From: Chromatiales bacterium
GTDB lineage: Bacteria; Pseudomonadota; Gammaproteobacteria; SZUA-152
Assembly: GCA_026982555.1 (NCBI GenBank)
Contig: JALSGT010000150.1
Span: 1 to 41,243 of the forward strand
Length of the DNA: 41,243 nt
Direction of reading: 5' to 3'
Position 1 is the first letter of the stretch. Each line of letters begins with the position of its first letter. Of this stretch, positions 17,634 to 24,434 are shown one piece after another. The notes under the pieces are model-generated. The model ran no database searches, had not been told where the DNA came from, and saw only the letters and a program-made list of their open reading frames with translations. Made by a program: the position numbers and the translations under genes.

Positions 17634-18806
17634 ATGGATTTTGCGAAAGAGAGAATGAAGAAACAAAGTCGTCTGGAATCCCAGGACGGGTATAACAACA
17701 CAAGTGGCTGGAGCTTTGGTATTTGCCGCCCGATAACCGGGTTTGATCCGATTCCTTTCCAGGCGAAACATGGCATATGGCACCACACCTTTCCGGACAA
17801 AAAAGCGCTTGAAGACTTTATCGATGACTTCACCTTTTTTCGGTATGGTGGCCGCTGCCCCTCCTGGTATACCGTTCTGTGGGAAAGTGACTTGCTTTCC
17901 CAGGAAGAAAAAAATACCCACACGTTAAACGGAAAAAGCTATACCCCGGAAGCAGGTAAAGCGCGTGTGGTTGAATTACTGCATTCAGGTGAACTTGCCC
18001 TCTATGGCACCGACAACTGGATTCCGGCAAAAGACCGCAATCATCATCTGGTGCCCAAAGCACGCAGAAAAGTAGAATACTTGCCGGTAACCCCTCAGCC
18101 TTATTCCTTAGGGCCACATGACATGCCAGGAGTTGAGCCACCGGCACGGGTGAGCAAAAGCGCAACAGAAAGGCGCAAGGAAAATCACCAGGAACAGAAA
18201 CGGGATGAGAAAATTGATCTGAGCACGTTTGACGAAATATATGCTAAGACTCCAGCAGCCAAATCAGAAATTGATTCAATGGCCGATGAAATTTCTGAAA
18301 TGTCCGGAGGTCAGGTAGCTAAAGCACCAATAAAGTCTCGAGAACGAGCAATCCAAAAAATTATGGATGATTATGGTGGGGATACTAAACGAATAAAAGA
18401 CTTAGCACGAAACACTATAATTGTATCCCCTGATAAAATAAACCCAGTGGTTACTGAATTGGCTAAGCATGGCGCTAGCGTCAAGGTCATCAATGGAGCT
18501 ACGGACCCACTAGGTTATAGCGGCGTTAACTCCACCATTAAAACCCAAGCTGGAATTTTTGGCGAAGTACAAGTGAACACTCCGGCAATGATTTATGCGA
18601 AAGAGCCTGAATCGATAGCAAAAGCCTTGCCTGGTAACGACTTGTATAACTCTATTGCGGTCAAAGCGAAAATCCCTGGGGGGCAAGGCCATAAACTCTA
18701 TGAACAATGGCGTATATTGCCAGCCTCTGACCCTGGGCGTTCAGTAATTGAGACGAAGAGTAAAGCTTATTATGATGTTGTAAGGAGTTCCATTTATGGC
18801 AATTAA
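17634..18806 (+). CDS. RelA/SpoT-fold toxin-like protein with an unknown N-terminal domain
   Basis: The 390-residue protein has two parts. Residues 1-165 (SGWSFGICRPITGFDPIPF, then aromatic-rich PSWYTVLWESD) match no family I recognise, and there is no signal peptide, PAAR or MIX-type sequence that I can see. A charged linker (about 170-215) follows. Residues 230-375 carry RelA/SpoT synthetase-like motifs: APIKSRERAIQKIMDDYGGD, RIKDLARNTIIV, GYSGVNSTI, then GEVQVNT with the expected catalytic Glu311, and HKLYEQWR. It should transfer pyrophosphate from ATP to a nucleotide or RNA end. Toxic relatives include toxSAS proteins and the T6SS effector Tas1. GC drops near the domain start. It overlaps the next gene by 11 bases and is linked to an HD hydrolase gene. 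No good ribosome site is seen; ATG 17655 is an alternative start. Confidence 0.75.
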   Translation: MDFAKERMKKQSRLESQDGYNNTSGWSFGICRPITGFDPIPFQAKHGIWHHTFPDKKALEDFIDDFTFFRYGGRCPSWYTVLWESDLLSQEEKNTHTLNGKSYTPEAGKARVVELLHSGELALYGTDNWIPAKDRNHHLVPKARRKVEYLPVTPQPYSLGPHDMPGVEPPARVSKSATERRKENHQEQKRDEKIDLSTFDEIYAKTPAAKSEIDSMADEISEMSGGQVAKAPIKSRERAIQKIMDDYGGDTKRIKDLARNTIIVSPDKINPVVTELAKHGASVKVINGATDPLGYSGVNSTIKTQAGIFGEVQVNTPAMIYAKEPESIAKALPGNDLYNSIAVKAKIPGGQGHKLYEQWRILPASDPGRSVIETKSKAYYDVVRSSIYGN

Positions 18807-19026
18807 AACTGGAAAATACTTAAATACAAAAAATATCTATATTGATTACCCATTCGAAAAAGTTATGTTCAGACGCATGAAAACAGATGGTTCAATTTAC
18901 AGAAAATTTTATGGTGAAGAGGAATCTCCTGATTCAGTGTCGCATGATAACAAATTGTTTAACGATGCCTTATTATCAGGTGATGAGATAACCCAAGAAA
19001 AATATATGATAGGAAAAGCAGATTGA
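18796..19026 (+). CDS. 76-aa protein of unknown function between toxin-like and HD genes
   Basis: I do not recognise this protein. It is small, charged and soluble, with an aromatic and basic first half (YIDYPFEKVMFRRMKTDGSI) and an acidic second half (GEEESPDSVSHDN, then LLSGDEITQEKY). The ATG at 18796 lies inside the toxin gene, overlapping its last 11 bases, with AAGGAG nine bases upstream. Its TGA overlaps the TTG start of the HD gene. The tight coupling on both sides makes it part of the cassette, so it could be an immunity or accessory protein. Its base composition is AT-rich like the HD gene. A real gene is supported by the ribosome site, the overlaps and the codon-like composition. 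Confidence 0.75.
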   Translation: MAIKTGKYLNTKNIYIDYPFEKVMFRRMKTDGSIYRKFYGEEESPDSVSHDNKLFNDALLSGDEITQEKYMIGKAD

Positions 19027-19463
19027 GCAATCTAGACAAAGCTATTGCTGTCGCTACCGAGGCACATACTGGACAGACTGATAAGGCCGGTCAGCCTTAT
19101 ATTTTGCATCCATTGCGACTGATGCTTAAGTTTCAAGTTGAAATTGAAATGATAGTGGCTGTAATGCATGATGTAATTGAAGATAGTAATTTTACACTTA
19201 ATGATTTAAAAAAACTTGGGTTTTCCGAAATTATTTTGGAAGCTATTGACTATTTATCAAAGAAAGATAATGAGAGCTATGAAACTTTCATCTCACGGTT
19301 ATCAGAAAACAAGTTGGCCAGAAAAATAAAAATTGAGGACATCAAAGATAACTTGAACTTAGCTAGGCTTGATAAAATCACCGATAAAGACTTGGCCAGG
19401 GTTAAAAAATATCATCAAGCATTAAAACTGTTAACTAATAATATCGGCAAACCTAAATTATAA
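19023..19463 (+). CDS. small alarmone hydrolase (SpoT/MESH1-type HD domain), probable antidote
   Basis: At 146 residues this is a stand-alone HD hydrolase of the RelA/SpoT type: AHTGQTDKAGQPYILHPLRL, then MHDVIED. His29, His49-Asp50 and the Glu53-Asp54 pair align with the Mn-binding and catalytic residues of SpoT and MESH1. KIEDIKDNLNLARLDK fits the later conserved Asp-Asn site. It should remove the 3'-pyrophosphate from ppGpp-like alarmones. Family members act as antitoxins to RelA-fold toxins (type IV, by destroying the product). The TTG start overlaps the previous stop by four bases with AGGA upstream. GC is strikingly low, about 27% in one 60-base stretch, unlike the chromosome around it. 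It is shorter than MESH1 but the core is complete. Confidence 0.85.
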   Translation: MSNLDKAIAVATEAHTGQTDKAGQPYILHPLRLMLKFQVEIEMIVAVMHDVIEDSNFTLNDLKKLGFSEIILEAIDYLSKKDNESYETFISRLSENKLARKIKIEDIKDNLNLARLDKITDKDLARVKKYHQALKLLTNNIGKPKL

Positions 19464-19830: not shown

Positions 19831-19845
19831 ACCTCTAGTGTATTT

Positions 19846-19919
19846 AACGCAAAGTTCGCGAAGGCGCAAAGAGCACAAAATATGTGCTTTTTTCTTTGCG
19901 TCTTTGCGCCCTTTGCGTT
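19846..19919. repeat. nested inverted repeat (AACGCAAAG / CTTTGCGTT) with an inner hairpin and T tract
   Basis: The outer arms AACGCAAAG...GGCGCAAAGA and TCTTTGCGCCCTTTGCGTT pair across the segment. Inside them AGCACA-AAATA-TGTGCT forms a small stem followed by six T residues, as in an intrinsic terminator on the plus strand. It is a repeat rather than part of a gene. Confidence 0.5.
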
Positions 19920-20219
19920 TACAACACTTGGTTTGAATGTAGCTCTGTAGCGTCGCTGCCAATGCAGATAGGCTTTATGAAATACCCCCCGTGTCAGGTT
20001 GGTTATCGCCTCGGGTGAAACACTTAAATAATCATATAGGGAGCGGAAAGGGTGCGAAATGCCGGATTGGGATTGATCGATAAATTATTGTCCCGTTTTG
20101 ACAGTGTATCGTGGAAATTGAAAAATAGTGTTTTCTGTCATCGAGCACTGATGATGACAACGATATCATTGAAATGACATGGGGCAAAATCAAGTATCAC
20201 TGGCTTCTTTCAAGTCAAT

Positions 20220-20588: not shown

Positions 20589-21464
20589 TTACAGTTTAAG
20601 CATCAATGCCTCGGGCAACTGAAAATGTTTTTTCTGTTGCGTGAGCGGACAAACAAAGGCCAGGCTACTGGCTGTTAATTGCAGATTCCCCTCTCTCTCG
20701 TCTACCTGACTTTCCTTGCCATATAACCGGTCACCCACTACAGGAAAACCAATACCCAACAAGTGTTTGCGTATTTGGTGTTTGCGCCCGGTATCTATAC
20801 GCACCTCCAGCAGGGAATAGTTTTTTTCTTTATCGTATTCCAACAGCTTTGCATAACTGCGTGCATGACGACCATCAATGTCGGTAGTGATTTTTTGTGG
20901 CCAGGTACTTTCGGGAAACTGGCCATGCACAATGACCTGATAATGTTTTTCCATTTCACGTTGTGCAAACAGTGCGGCAAGACTGGAGGCTATACGTTTT
21001 TGATGGGCAATCATAATTAAGCCAGTCGCCGCACGGTCCAGGCGATGCACAATAAAAGCCGGGCGTTGTGGCATCAGGTTTTGCTCGACCCAGCGCTGAA
21101 TCGTACAATGGTCACCCCACTTTGACCCTTGTGAAAGTAAACCACAGGGTTTATGCCAAATACTGTATTCACCTTGATCCGCAATAATCTGCGGTGGTGT
21201 GGGAATGGATTCCAGCACCCGTGCATCGTAATAAAGATGCAATTCATCAGCTATCGAAAGTATTTTGCTGGCACGCCGCAATCTGCGGGGTTTGCCGGTT
21301 TTTTTCTCCTCAAGCCACACTGCACCTTTTTGCATGACCTGTTTGATATGTTGTTTAGACAAACCGGTAGCTTCTGCCAGTAAATCGACAGCGCGGGAAT
21401 CCGTATTTTCAACGGTGAGGTGAATGTCAAAAGGTGATGCAAGTTCAGGCATAATAGTGACCAT
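20589..21464 (-). CDS. RluA family RNA pseudouridine synthase
   Basis: The protein has the RluA catalytic block FIVHRLDRAATGLIMIAHQK, in which the Asp of HRLDR attacks the uridine. Supporting motifs are SIWHKPCGLLSQGSKWGD, KHYQVIVHGQ and GRKHQIRKHLLGIGFPVVGDRLYG. An S4-like N-terminal segment (LLAEATGLSKQHIKQVMQKGAVWLEE) is present. It isomerises uridine to pseudouridine in rRNA or tRNA, but the exact target cannot be told. The ORF-track start (21527) is probably too far upstream, since it lies only 11 bases from the divergent gene. ATG at 21464, or MPEL at 21452, fits family N-termini better. Neither has a clear ribosome site. Confidence 0.9.
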   Translation of the reverse strand: MVTIMPELASPFDIHLTVENTDSRAVDLLAEATGLSKQHIKQVMQKGAVWLEEKKTGKPRRLRRASKILSIADELHLYYDARVLESIPTPPQIIADQGEYSIWHKPCGLLSQGSKWGDHCTIQRWVEQNLMPQRPAFIVHRLDRAATGLIMIAHQKRIASSLAALFAQREMEKHYQVIVHGQFPESTWPQKITTDIDGRHARSYAKLLEYDKEKNYSLLEVRIDTGRKHQIRKHLLGIGFPVVGDRLYGKESQVDEREGNLQLTASSLAFVCPLTQQKKHFQLPEALMLKL

Positions 21465-21537
21465 TTTAAAGCTTGCGCATATTGTAGCCGAATAAGGTGG
21501 TGTAAACTGCAAGATATCATTCACCATAAATATACCC

Positions 21538-22188
21538 GTGACACTATTAGAATCACTCTTCCACTCGCAACTATTATTTGCCCTGATGCTTTTTGCCGTT
21601 GTCTCAGTGCTTATCGAAGTTGCGGCTTATAAATTGCTGAATGCCATCGCTGATGTTGCACCGTCACATTGGCTAATGGAACATGCCGTCATCCCCGCAG
21701 CACGGGCATTGGCGCTGGTCAGTTTTATTTTGGTGGCTTACCCGGTGTTATTTGGCGTGGAATCGGCACTGCCTGTTGGTGAGCTGCTGGCCGCCGGGCA
21801 GTTACGATTGAGCAACCTGGTGAATGTGGTTTTTCTATTGTCGCTACTGTTACCACTGATTCCGGTTTTCAGCCGCTGGCCTGCTTTTGTATTGCCCATT
21901 CAGGGTATTGCAGCGGCCACCATGGTGTTTCTCTGGTGGGCCGATACCCAACCACGAGCAGATATCCATTTCTGGCCCGGCGCAATAACAGCGCTGGGTT
22001 TACTGGTGTTTGCTTTTGTGACTCATGAAATCGCTAAACAACTTTCTCATCAACTGGAAAAAAAGGTGGATCGTTTTACTCAGAGAGAGGGCTCCGGTCA
22101 GTTGATTTACCGCACGGTGGTGATGATCATGCAGGTGCCCGTTATTCTGCTATACACTCTATCGCTGGGACGACAACTACACGGATAA
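21538..22188 (+). CDS. multi-pass membrane protein of unknown function
   Basis: This 216-residue protein is mostly hydrophobic, with about six predicted membrane helices (near 10-32, 50-70, 92-112, 115-133, 143-162 and 192-210). Between the last two lies a short charged loop, HEIAKQLSHQLEKKVDRFTQREGS. I do not recognise a family. The start is a GTG at 21538 with no convincing Shine-Dalgarno. It is divergent from the RluA-type gene and convergent with the GIDE-domain gene 177 bases downstream. Coding potential is good because the frame stays open and hydrophobic throughout, with codon use like the neighbours. Confidence 0.75.
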   Translation: MTLLESLFHSQLLFALMLFAVVSVLIEVAAYKLLNAIADVAPSHWLMEHAVIPAARALALVSFILVAYPVLFGVESALPVGELLAAGQLRLSNLVNVVFLLSLLLPLIPVFSRWPAFVLPIQGIAAATMVFLWWADTQPRADIHFWPGAITALGLLVFAFVTHEIAKQLSHQLEKKVDRFTQREGSGQLIYRTVVMIMQVPVILLYTLSLGRQLHG

Positions 22189-22365
22189 AAACATACCGAA
22201 CACTTCGGCAATAAACAACTCCGCAGCAAGCTGGCGCGTGGCATTATTTATGGTTCCTGCGGTCTCCCGTGGGAACCCATACCAGGCTTTGTGACATCCA
22301 CCAACTCGACATGAATATAATCATTGCATAAGTCATTGCACTTAAATGCAGGTTATTGGGCAGCT

Positions 22366-23289
22366 CTAAACAAGTCGCACCGTTGCCATCCACACAGCTG
22401 CTGAACCTGCCACAAAAAAACCTGCCAGACAGCCTCCTGCTTTCAGTTTATAGCGTTTAATCAATTCATGCTGGGGATATACGGATAACAAATAGGGACG
22501 GTTGTCGTGTTGTGGTTTCTTCATAATATGGGTGGGAGGTTCCACGCTGCGCTTTGATTGTTCACGACGCACCCGTTGGTACGCAGCCTTGCGTACGGCC
22601 TCCCATTCCTGCACATCCAGTTCACCATCTCCATTGGCATCAAAATGTTTCAACAGCGCCGCCGGGTTCTTTTTCCAAAGCGCCAGCACGTCACGGACTT
22701 CAGCATCGGTATTAAACGATTCCGCGCCACCACCCACGGACATAAACATGCCAATGGCGTACAAAGATTCGCCAGGGTGCATGCGTTCTTCAGTGTAACG
22801 ATAACGACCACTTAGTCGCCCAAGGAAACTGCCGCTTTTATGTGAATTACGCTGTGAAGGATAACTGAATTCATACCACATTTTTTTGGTTTTGCAGGCG
22901 ACTGTGGCCCCTTCCGGGTCAATCACGCAACGACCGGTACTGCCCACCAAGACAAACAATTCATCGCTGCTACCGGATGCCACGACACGGCTGTGCCGGT
23001 CGTTGATTTTTTCTACTTTGTAACGATACCAGGTACAGGGGGTGGTGGTCAGTGGCGCAATGATAGGCTCCCCTTCCATGAGCTCACCCCGCCCGGCCAG
23101 TTCAACATAGCCTTGTGCCGCAGAACGGATTTTTGAGGTGGGCGTGTCTTCAATAATCCGTGCCCGCCGGAAGAAAATGAAGGCAAAAACAAAACCGGCT
23201 ACAGAGGCAACAATACCAATAAGCAGATAAAAATAAAATTTACCCTGTGGGAGATTGAGCACCCAGGCTTGCAATGACTCAGCGGACAT
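22366..23289 (-). CDS. GIDE-domain membrane protein with an EF-hand insert
   Basis: The 307-residue protein has an N-terminal helix (about 18-41). A GIDE domain follows: IIEDTPTSKIRSAAQGYVELAG, EPIIAPLTTTPCTWYRYKVE and the later VDPEGA-like strand. This is the domain of mitochondrial MUL1-type E3 ligases without the RING. GESLYAIGMFMSVGG continues it. Near residue 210 DANGDGELDVQE is a complete 12-residue EF-hand calcium loop, which is not part of the standard GIDE layout. A C-terminal helix (about 283-303) closes it, so GIDE and the EF hand sit between two membrane anchors. It lies 26 bases after lemA on the same strand, a known pairing in bacteria. The function is unknown. Confidence 0.88.
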   Translation of the reverse strand: MSAESLQAWVLNLPQGKFYFYLLIGIVASVAGFVFAFIFFRRARIIEDTPTSKIRSAAQGYVELAGRGELMEGEPIIAPLTTTPCTWYRYKVEKINDRHSRVVASGSSDELFVLVGSTGRCVIDPEGATVACKTKKMWYEFSYPSQRNSHKSGSFLGRLSGRYRYTEERMHPGESLYAIGMFMSVGGGAESFNTDAEVRDVLALWKKNPAALLKHFDANGDGELDVQEWEAVRKAAYQRVRREQSKRSVEPPTHIMKKPQHDNRPYLLSVYPQHELIKRYKLKAGGCLAGFFVAGSAAVWMATVRLV

Positions 23290-23315
23290 AAATTAAAAAA
23301 ATGACTTGTACAAAA

Positions 23316-23888
23316 TCAGCCAAACAATGCTTTGACATCAACGTCTTTAAGCTCTTCTTCATCAAACTCCAGCAACTCAGCAGGCTTGAAATTGAATTGA
23401 CTGGCAATGATCACATCCGGGAATTGTTCAATGCGCACATTATTAAGATTAACCGCCTCGTTGTAAAATTCACGCCGGTCGGCAATGGCATTTTCCAGCC
23501 CGCTAATACGTGTCTGTAAATGCTGGAAAGACTGATCAGCCTTGAGATCAGGATAGGCCTCGGCCACGGCGAACAAGCCACCTAACCCCATGCGCAGTTG
23601 AGTTTCTGCTGCCCCAAGGGCTGCCATATCACCCATTTGCTGGGCGCTGGCCACTGCGGAACGGGCTTGCATCACTTTTTCCATGGTTTCCTGCTCATAC
23701 CCCATGTACTGCTTACAGATCTCAATAAGTTTCGGCAACTCATCATGGCGCTGCTTCAGCAGCACATCAATGTTCGCCCAGGATTTGCTGACATTATGCT
23801 TCAATGACACCAGATTGTTGTAAATCATGATGGCGTACAGCACGATTGCGGCAATCAGGCCTAGAATAATGAAGGTTGAAATATCCAC
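23316..23888 (-). CDS. lemA: LemA family protein
   Basis: The 190 residues include an N-terminal membrane helix (about 5-23) and then the LemA core. YNNLVSLKHNVSKSWANIDVLLKQRHDELPKLIEICKQYMGYE is diagnostic, followed by ARSAVASAQ, LFAVAEAYPDLKADQSFQHLQTRISGLENAIADRREFYNEAVN and the FNFKPAELLEFDE ending. LemA proteins are membrane-anchored helical bundles of unclear function, often encoded with GIDE or TPM-domain proteins. The start is a GTG at 23888 with GGGAG six bases upstream. The GIDE gene follows after 26 bases, so the two are likely co-transcribed. Confidence 0.95.
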   Translation of the reverse strand: MDISTFIILGLIAAIVLYAIMIYNNLVSLKHNVSKSWANIDVLLKQRHDELPKLIEICKQYMGYEQETMEKVMQARSAVASAQQMGDMAALGAAETQLRMGLGGLFAVAEAYPDLKADQSFQHLQTRISGLENAIADRREFYNEAVNLNNVRIEQFPDVIIASQFNFKPAELLEFDEEELKDVDVKALFG

Positions 23889-24434
23889 TACAACTCCCTG
23901 GTTTTATTAATTAGACTGGCATGGTGATTTTTATCAGTATCGGCAACAATTGTAACGAATTGAGCCAAATGAAAAACAACAGAATCATTGCGCATGACAT
24001 TCAAAAGAGCAAGAAAGCAGATTATTCTGCGAGAGAGGTGCAAATGGGGACGGGGTGTGGGCTCCATTCTGCCGGAGCCGGAACGCGCTCAAAAAAGATA
24101 TTCAAATCTCGCTGCTTATTTCATTCCATTAAAAATGATCAAAAAACAAGCATGCAATAACTCCCCCGCCTGGTATCTCGGCTTTACCTCCTGAGTCACC
24201 CTACCGCCCCCATCCATGGGGTCGTCGTATTCAGCTCTCTCTCGTCTGTTTTTCAAACACAAAAAACGAACGAATGTGAACCCAATCTGAATACCAAACA
24301 GGGAAGTTATTGCATGCCCATTCCAACCGGATATTGATACCCTGGCTGTCGCCATGTCGAATCGACACCTCAACCTAATCTGTAACCTTTATGCCCACAA
24401 CTCCGATTTTTCGAGCTGACATTTATCGTCAATG
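23889..24434. other. 546-base non-coding stretch between sulA and lemA
   Basis: This segment must hold the lemA promoter at its left side. Short ORFs occur on both strands (for example 23921-24160), but they lack recognisable motifs, and one keeps a chance GAGAGGTGCAA before an ATG. A small GGCTCC/GGAGCC stem is present near 24059-24078. I see no RNA gene or further repeat in it. Confidence 0.6.

What the first reader, a model, noticed from the sequence alone, without database searches (positions are those of the whole stretch)
17634..19463. Three-gene cassette pairing a RelA/SpoT-fold toxin-like protein with a small alarmone hydrolase
Seen: the first gene ends in a domain with RelA/SpoT synthetase motifs (KSRERAIQKI, IKDLARNTI, GYSGVN, EVQVNT). 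Two overlapping genes follow, the last a complete SpoT-type HD domain (ILHP, MHDVIED). Known: RelA-fold toxins (toxSAS, Tas1) make alarmones or modify RNA, and some are paired with hydrolase antitoxins. Inferred: this is an alarmone-producing toxin with an enzymatic antidote. It differs from compact toxSAS pairs in having a 165-residue unknown N-terminal domain and a third small gene.
Basis: partly seen in the sequence, partly recalled or inferred. Interest (0 to 1): 0.88.

Follow-up and report, generated by a model that had tools for sequence, protein, structure and literature searches.

The report
Tas1 alarmone toxin with two antidotes
This is a known kind of bacterial weapon, an enzyme that drains a rival cell's ATP, sitting beside its two known kinds of self-protection gene; what is unusual is that the toxin is joined to a delivery segment seen so far only in this bacterial genus, where the toxin end is swapped like a cartridge.

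Summary
ORF1 (17634-18806) ends in a Tas1/Apk1 (p)ppApp synthetase domain: 62% identical to the Tas1 crystal structure 6OX6, E 1e-71, modelled to 1.3 Å. The "third small gene" (18796-19026) is Tis1, the known Tas1-blocking immunity protein (PF24154, E 7e-37). The HD gene (19023-19463) matches the (p)ppApp hydrolase 7SMG (E 5e-32), not MESH1. The order toxin-Tis1-hydrolase recurs at all nine loci from other genera that I found by toxin sequence alone. The arrangement of one blocking and one enzymatic immunity protein is published for the Apk2 family. The cassette is therefore a known kind.

What was not recognised by Pfam, PHROGs, NCBIfam or PDB searches is the N-terminal ~175 residues. This leader ends in a fixed LGPH[DE]xPGxxPP linker. 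Leaders with this linker were found only in the window's genus, where they carry other toxins (RNase A-type, lipase-like, others). In one congener the same chromosomal site carries a lipase-like toxin, with decayed tis1 and aph1 left behind: a caught toxin swap. The delivery route is unresolved: neither T6SS, eCIS nor TPS exporters track these toxins across the genus.

The parts
17634..18161 (+). N-terminal leader of the toxin gene (residues 1-176): a roughly 130-residue domain, then a disordered linker with LGPHDMPGVEPP at residues 157-168 (DNA 18102-18137)
   Evidence: Start and length match the leader of an RNase A-type toxin in congener G009 (46-48% identity). No hit in Pfam, NCBIfam, PDB or PHROGs for this part. 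Found only in the window's genus.
18201..18210 (+). Recombination boundary between leader and toxin domain
   Evidence: DNA identity to the same site in G003 ends at 18201 and DNA identity to the G009:C9 tas1 starts at 18210; GC falls from 0.50 to 0.42 here
18225..18803 (+). Tas1/Apk1-type (p)ppApp synthetase toxin domain (residues ~198-390)
   Evidence: phmmer 6OX6 chain A E 1.1e-71; AlphaFold pLDDT about 84-96 over most of the domain; Foldseek to 6OX6 E 8e-24, 1.3 Å over 189 columns, 62% identity
18796..19026 (+). tis1: immunity protein expected to occlude the toxin's acceptor-nucleotide site
   Evidence: PF24154 Tis1_ImmP 125.8 bits, E 7.3e-37; 6OX6 chain B E 9.8e-20
19023..19463 (+). aph1-like single-domain HD (p)ppApp hydrolase, TTG start
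   Evidence: 7SMG '(p)ppApp hydrolase' E 5e-32, 114 bits, well above any (p)ppGpp hydrolase or MESH1; H29, H49, D50, E53, D54, D106 and N110 invariant in the alignment of 11 sequences

Best explanation
The three genes are an antibacterial polymorphic-toxin cassette of the Apk1/Tas1 kind: leader-Tas1 toxin, then Tis1, then an Aph1-like hydrolase. The toxin domain moves pyrophosphate from ATP to the 3'-OH of ATP/ADP, making (p)ppApp and draining the adenine nucleotide pool of a recipient cell. In the producer, Tis1 plugs the acceptor site, and the HD enzyme turns any (p)ppApp that escapes back into ATP/ADP. The leader is the trafficking part of a genus-specific polymorphic toxin family; toxin-plus-immunity modules are exchanged behind its fixed LGPH linker. 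Shown here: homology, fold, conserved catalytic residues, gene order and the swap. Inferred: enzymatic activity, neutralisation, and export to other cells.
For: Toxin domain is Tas1. Middle gene is Tis1. HD gene is closest to a (p)ppApp hydrolase. Gene order conserved at all 9 loci from other genera fetched with the toxin only and in congener G009:C9. Toxin fused to other delivery parts elsewhere: PAAR, Rhs, DUF6861. The leader carries other toxins in congeners: RNase A CdiA-CT, Mbeg1-like lipase. Same chromosomal site in G003 has the leader's linker, a lipase-like toxin plus an ankyrin-repeat-like gene, and decayed tis1 and aph1. Composition step at the leader/toxin boundary. Biochemistry of Tas1, Tis1 and Aph1: PMC11782079, PMC12226406, PMC12691689.
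Against: No activity has been measured. No exporter is encoded nearby, and no T6SS sheath gene was found in this 73%-complete genome, so export of this copy is unproven. The leader structure is low confidence (mean pLDDT 55).
Confidence: 0.93

Rival explanations
1. A non-exported toxin-antitoxin or abortive-infection module (like FaRel with ATfaRel and AT2faRel), acting inside its own cell.
For: C. marina FaRel is likewise flanked by a hydrolase antitoxin and a Tis1-like antitoxin (PMC11782079). No exporter sits beside the window locus.
Against: The toxin is a C-terminal warhead behind a leader shared with CdiA-type RNase and lipase-like toxins. Its close relatives are PAAR and Rhs effectors. 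The site shows immunity-gene relics after a toxin swap, as in interbacterial effector loci (PMC5361080).
Confidence: 0.12
2. A tRNA-pyrophosphorylating toxin (FaRel2/CapRel type).
For: Same SYNTH superfamily; CapRel appears among the structure matches.
Against: 62% identity to Tas1 against 14-15% to CapRel; the partner is Tis1, not a pZFD antitoxin. PMC11782079 ties Tis1-type neutralisation to (p)ppApp makers and pZFD to tRNA modifiers.
Confidence: 0.03
3. A decayed, non-functional remnant: the leader was once attached to an exporter domain that is now lost.
For: Leader genes in G005 and one G009 copy are frameshifted, and the G003 tis1/aph1 are broken.
Against: All three window ORFs are intact and overlap, with catalytic residues kept. 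The leader begins at the same place in congeners that have an unrelated gene (nuoN-like) upstream, so nothing appears to be missing.
Confidence: 0.08

Closest known systems
Tas1/Apk1-Tis1 of Pseudomonas aeruginosa PA14 (6OX6)
   Same: Same toxin domain (62% identity), same immunity protein family, same order
   Different: Tas1/Apk1 is described as a PAAR/T6SS effector; the window toxin has no PAAR and a genus-restricted leader with an LGPH linker
Apk2-IapK-Aph1 MuF prophage toxins (PMC12226406)
   Same: Same logic: synthetase toxin, then a blocking immunity gene, then a (p)ppApp hydrolase
   Different: MuF leader and prophage location there; the window domain belongs to the Tas1/Apk1 side
FaRel with ATfaRel (SAH) and AT2faRel (Tis1-like) of Cellulomonas marina (PMC11782079)
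   Same: (p)ppApp toxSAS with one enzymatic and one Tis1-like antitoxin
   Different: The antitoxin genes flank the toxin; no leader; toxin-antitoxin rather than effector context
Exported alarmone synthetases with varied secretion domains (PMC12691689)
   Same: Apk1-type domains plugged onto many export domains (Sec, LXG, MuF, Rhs/PAAR, DUF4157)
   Different: The window leader was not recognised as any of these domains in the family searches run here

Membership tests
Tas1/Apk1 (p)ppApp synthetase domain | Sequence and fold of the Tas1 SYNTH domain | tested here: met
   E 1e-71 to 6OX6_A; Foldseek E 8e-24, 1.3 Å
Tas1/Apk1 (p)ppApp synthetase domain | Synthetase motifs kept (IKDLARNTI, GYSGVN, catalytic Glu E311) | tested here: met
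   Identical or conservative in the residue alignment and across relatives
Tas1/Apk1 (p)ppApp synthetase domain | Adenosine rather than guanosine acceptor | not testable with these tools
   Needs a nucleotide assay; inferred from 62% identity and the Tis1/Aph1 partners
Tas1 as T6SS effector | N-terminal PAAR and T6SS delivery | tested here: not met
   No PAAR in P0001; no PAAR family hit and no TssC in the own genome, 73% complete
Tis1 immunity protein | PF24154 above its curated cut-off, encoded directly after the toxin | tested here: met
   125.8 bits against cut-off 27; 11-nt overlap with the toxin gene
Aph1 (p)ppApp hydrolase | Single HD domain with metal and catalytic residues, closest to a (p)ppApp-specific hydrolase | tested here: met
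   7SMG E 5e-32; residues invariant across relatives
Aph1 (p)ppApp hydrolase | Published (p)ppApp-specificity signature and activity | not tested
   The defining paper (PMC10083569) is not held
toxSAS toxin-antitoxin pair | Stand-alone small synthetase without a trafficking leader | tested here: not met
   Leader shared with other toxin types in congeners
Polymorphic toxin system | Constant N-terminal part with exchangeable C-terminal toxins and matching immunity genes | tested here: met
   Linker found at 12 places in 7 of 12 genus genomes, with different warheads; same-site swap

The most novel reading that the evidence does not exclude
The leader plus LGPH linker defines an undescribed, genus-restricted class of polymorphic toxins that is delivered without a T6SS, for example by the genus's extracellular contractile injection system or a two-partner exporter, and that has captured the Apk1-Tis1-Aph1 module as one of several interchangeable warheads.
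Probability: 0.45. Interest if true: 0.5.

Novelty: new variant of a known kind. Interest (0 to 1): 0.34.

Why it matters
The toxin and its two antidotes are already understood. The value lies in the context. A Tas1 warhead sits on an unrecognised leader in a genome without a detected T6SS, and a sister species carries the same site with a different toxin and decayed tis1/aph1. That gives a concrete natural example of warhead replacement in which a blocking and an enzymatic immunity gene decay together once their toxin is gone. It also gives a marker, the LGPH linker, for finding further unnamed toxins in this genus.

Tried and rejected
MESH1 or general small alarmone hydrolase for the HD gene: rejected, 7SMG scores far better. 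tRNA-modifying toxSAS: rejected on identity and partner type. PAAR/T6SS: no PAAR in the protein; across 12 genus genomes TssC is in 4 and linker toxins in 7, with only 2 shared. eCIS: G000 has a sheath, tube, AAA+ and eCIS_core locus, but eCIS_core is in 6 of 12 and shared by 5 of the 7 linker genomes, which by hand calculation is about p 0.12, not significant and confounded by phylogeny. Using the ~536-aa sheath and the first, smaller count of leader-bearing genomes had looked better (about 0.045 by hand), but it did not survive the fuller linker count. Two-partner secretion: TPS proteins in 9 of 12 genomes, next to a linker toxin at only one locus. Structure search with the leader: nothing below E 1, model poor. 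Leader in phages' viral contigs and plasmids: none. Promoter and terminator matches are at shuffle level.

Full report
Observation. The quoted synthetase and HD motifs are present.

Identity. ORF1 residues 198-385 match Tas1 of the crystal structure 6OX6 with E 1.1e-71. The predicted structure has pLDDT of roughly 84-96 across most of this domain and superposes on 6OX6 at 1.3 Å over 189 columns with 62% identity; CapRel, Rel and SAS enzymes follow far behind. ORF2 is Tis1 (PF24154, 125.8 bits against a cut-off of 27; 6OX6 chain B, E 9.8e-20). ORF3's best solved relative is 7SMG, deposited as a (p)ppApp hydrolase (E 5e-32), with (p)ppGpp hydrolases at 1e-10 and MESH1-type entries (3nqw, 3nr1, 5vxa) at 0.002-0.13. 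The HD residues are invariant in an alignment of 11 sequences.

Conservation of the trio. A scan of 84,980 species genomes with the toxin domain alone returned nine loci (Pseudomonas, Vibrio, Marinobacter, Pseudoduganella, an Oceanobacter MAG, gamma proteobacterium L18). All nine carry Tis1 and then the HD gene directly downstream, as does a congener (G009:C9). One viral contig has the toxin and a Tis1-like protein but no detected HD gene. In these relatives the toxin domain sits behind PAAR (L004 by search; the near-identical N-termini of L005-L007 were read by eye), Rhs (L008), DUF6861 (L011) or unassigned N-termini.

Mechanism from the literature. Tas1/Apk1 makes (p)ppApp and drains ADP/ATP; Tis1 blocks the acceptor-nucleotide site (PMC11782079; PMC12691689). 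In Apk2 loci the toxin gene is followed by a blocking immunity gene and by aph1, whose product hydrolyses (p)ppApp and partly restores ATP/ADP (PMC12226406). The window trio has the same logic. Activity of these particular proteins is inferred, not shown.

The leader. Residues 1-176 match nothing in Pfam, NCBIfam, PHROGs or PDB. Related leaders were found only in the window's genus among 57 relatives and only in the own genome in a class-wide draw of 369. In congener G009 an intact leader that starts at the same point carries a CdiA-CT RNase A domain (PF18431, 28.9 bits against cut-off 27) followed by a small gene. A second leader type shares the linker LGPH[DE]xPGxxPP (profile comparison 95%, driven mostly by the linker). 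A DNA pattern for the linker gives 12 places in 7 of 12 genus genomes, against 1 for the reversed control pattern; their C-terminal parts include lipase-like and unassigned types.

A toxin swap caught in place. Contig C20 of congener G003 is the same chromosomal site: window 20591-24029 aligns at 84-86% DNA identity, 18043-18201 (leader end and linker) at 79%, and 18945-19414 (end of tis1 and aph1) at 74%. Between the last two, G003 has a lipase-like toxin and an ankyrin-repeat-like gene (my reading of its sequence) instead of tas1, and its tis1 and aph1 are broken. DNA similarity to the G009:C9 tas1 begins at window 18210, nine bases after the G003 similarity ends. GC falls from 0.50 in the leader to 0.42 in the toxin, 0.31 in tis1 and 0.34 in aph1, against 0.53 in valS. 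The tis1/aph1 relics in G003 say that a tas1 module stood there before. Retention of old immunity genes after effector replacement is known from Vibrio cholerae T6SS loci (PMC5361080).

Delivery is open. TssC (VipB) is absent from G000, G003, G005 and G009, the genomes with this leader type; G009 is 96% complete, the others 73-86%. The own genome has an eCIS-type locus on C30 (sheath, tube, AAA+ ATPase, eCIS_core protein), and two-partner exoproteins are common in the genus, but neither tracks the linker toxins significantly. One second-type toxin lies directly downstream of a two-partner exoprotein gene (G009:C69).

Verdict. The cassette is a known kind with high confidence. The leader context is a new variant of modest interest.

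Noticed in passing
own genome G000:C30 (L036 8247-19000): An extracellular contractile injection system locus: sheath, tube, AAA+ ATPase and two eCIS_core (formerly DUF4157) proteins, one with a weak M15 peptidase match.
   Followed up: partly
own genome G000:C92 (L019 874-2211): A second linker-type polymorphic toxin with a different leader and an unassigned C-terminal domain, conserved in G009 and G011; the contig ends just after it, so its immunity gene is not visible.
   Followed up: partly
G009:C47 (L017, L028 about 2733) and G005:C300 (L014, L018): Leader genes are frameshifted near a T-rich stretch after the TFF codons; pseudogenes, assembly errors or phase variation were not distinguished.
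   Followed up: no
G009:C69 (L060): A two-partner-secretion filament gene (TPS domain and a long repeat region, split by a stop) lies directly upstream of a linker-type toxin gene and a possible immunity gene.
   Followed up: partly
window 19837-19928: A 36-nt imperfect inverted repeat (81% complementary, 20-nt loop) just downstream of the cassette, resembling a dispersed repeat element.
   Followed up: no
window 22366-23289 (-): A GIDE-family (E3 ubiquitin ligase-like) protein with an EF-hand-like segment in a bacterial genome.
   Followed up: no
L047 4551-7341 (viral contig IMGVR_UViG_3300037070_005649): A Tas1-like domain about 42-45% identical, followed by a Tis1-like domain at the start of a larger ORF, with no detected hydrolase gene.
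   Followed up: partly
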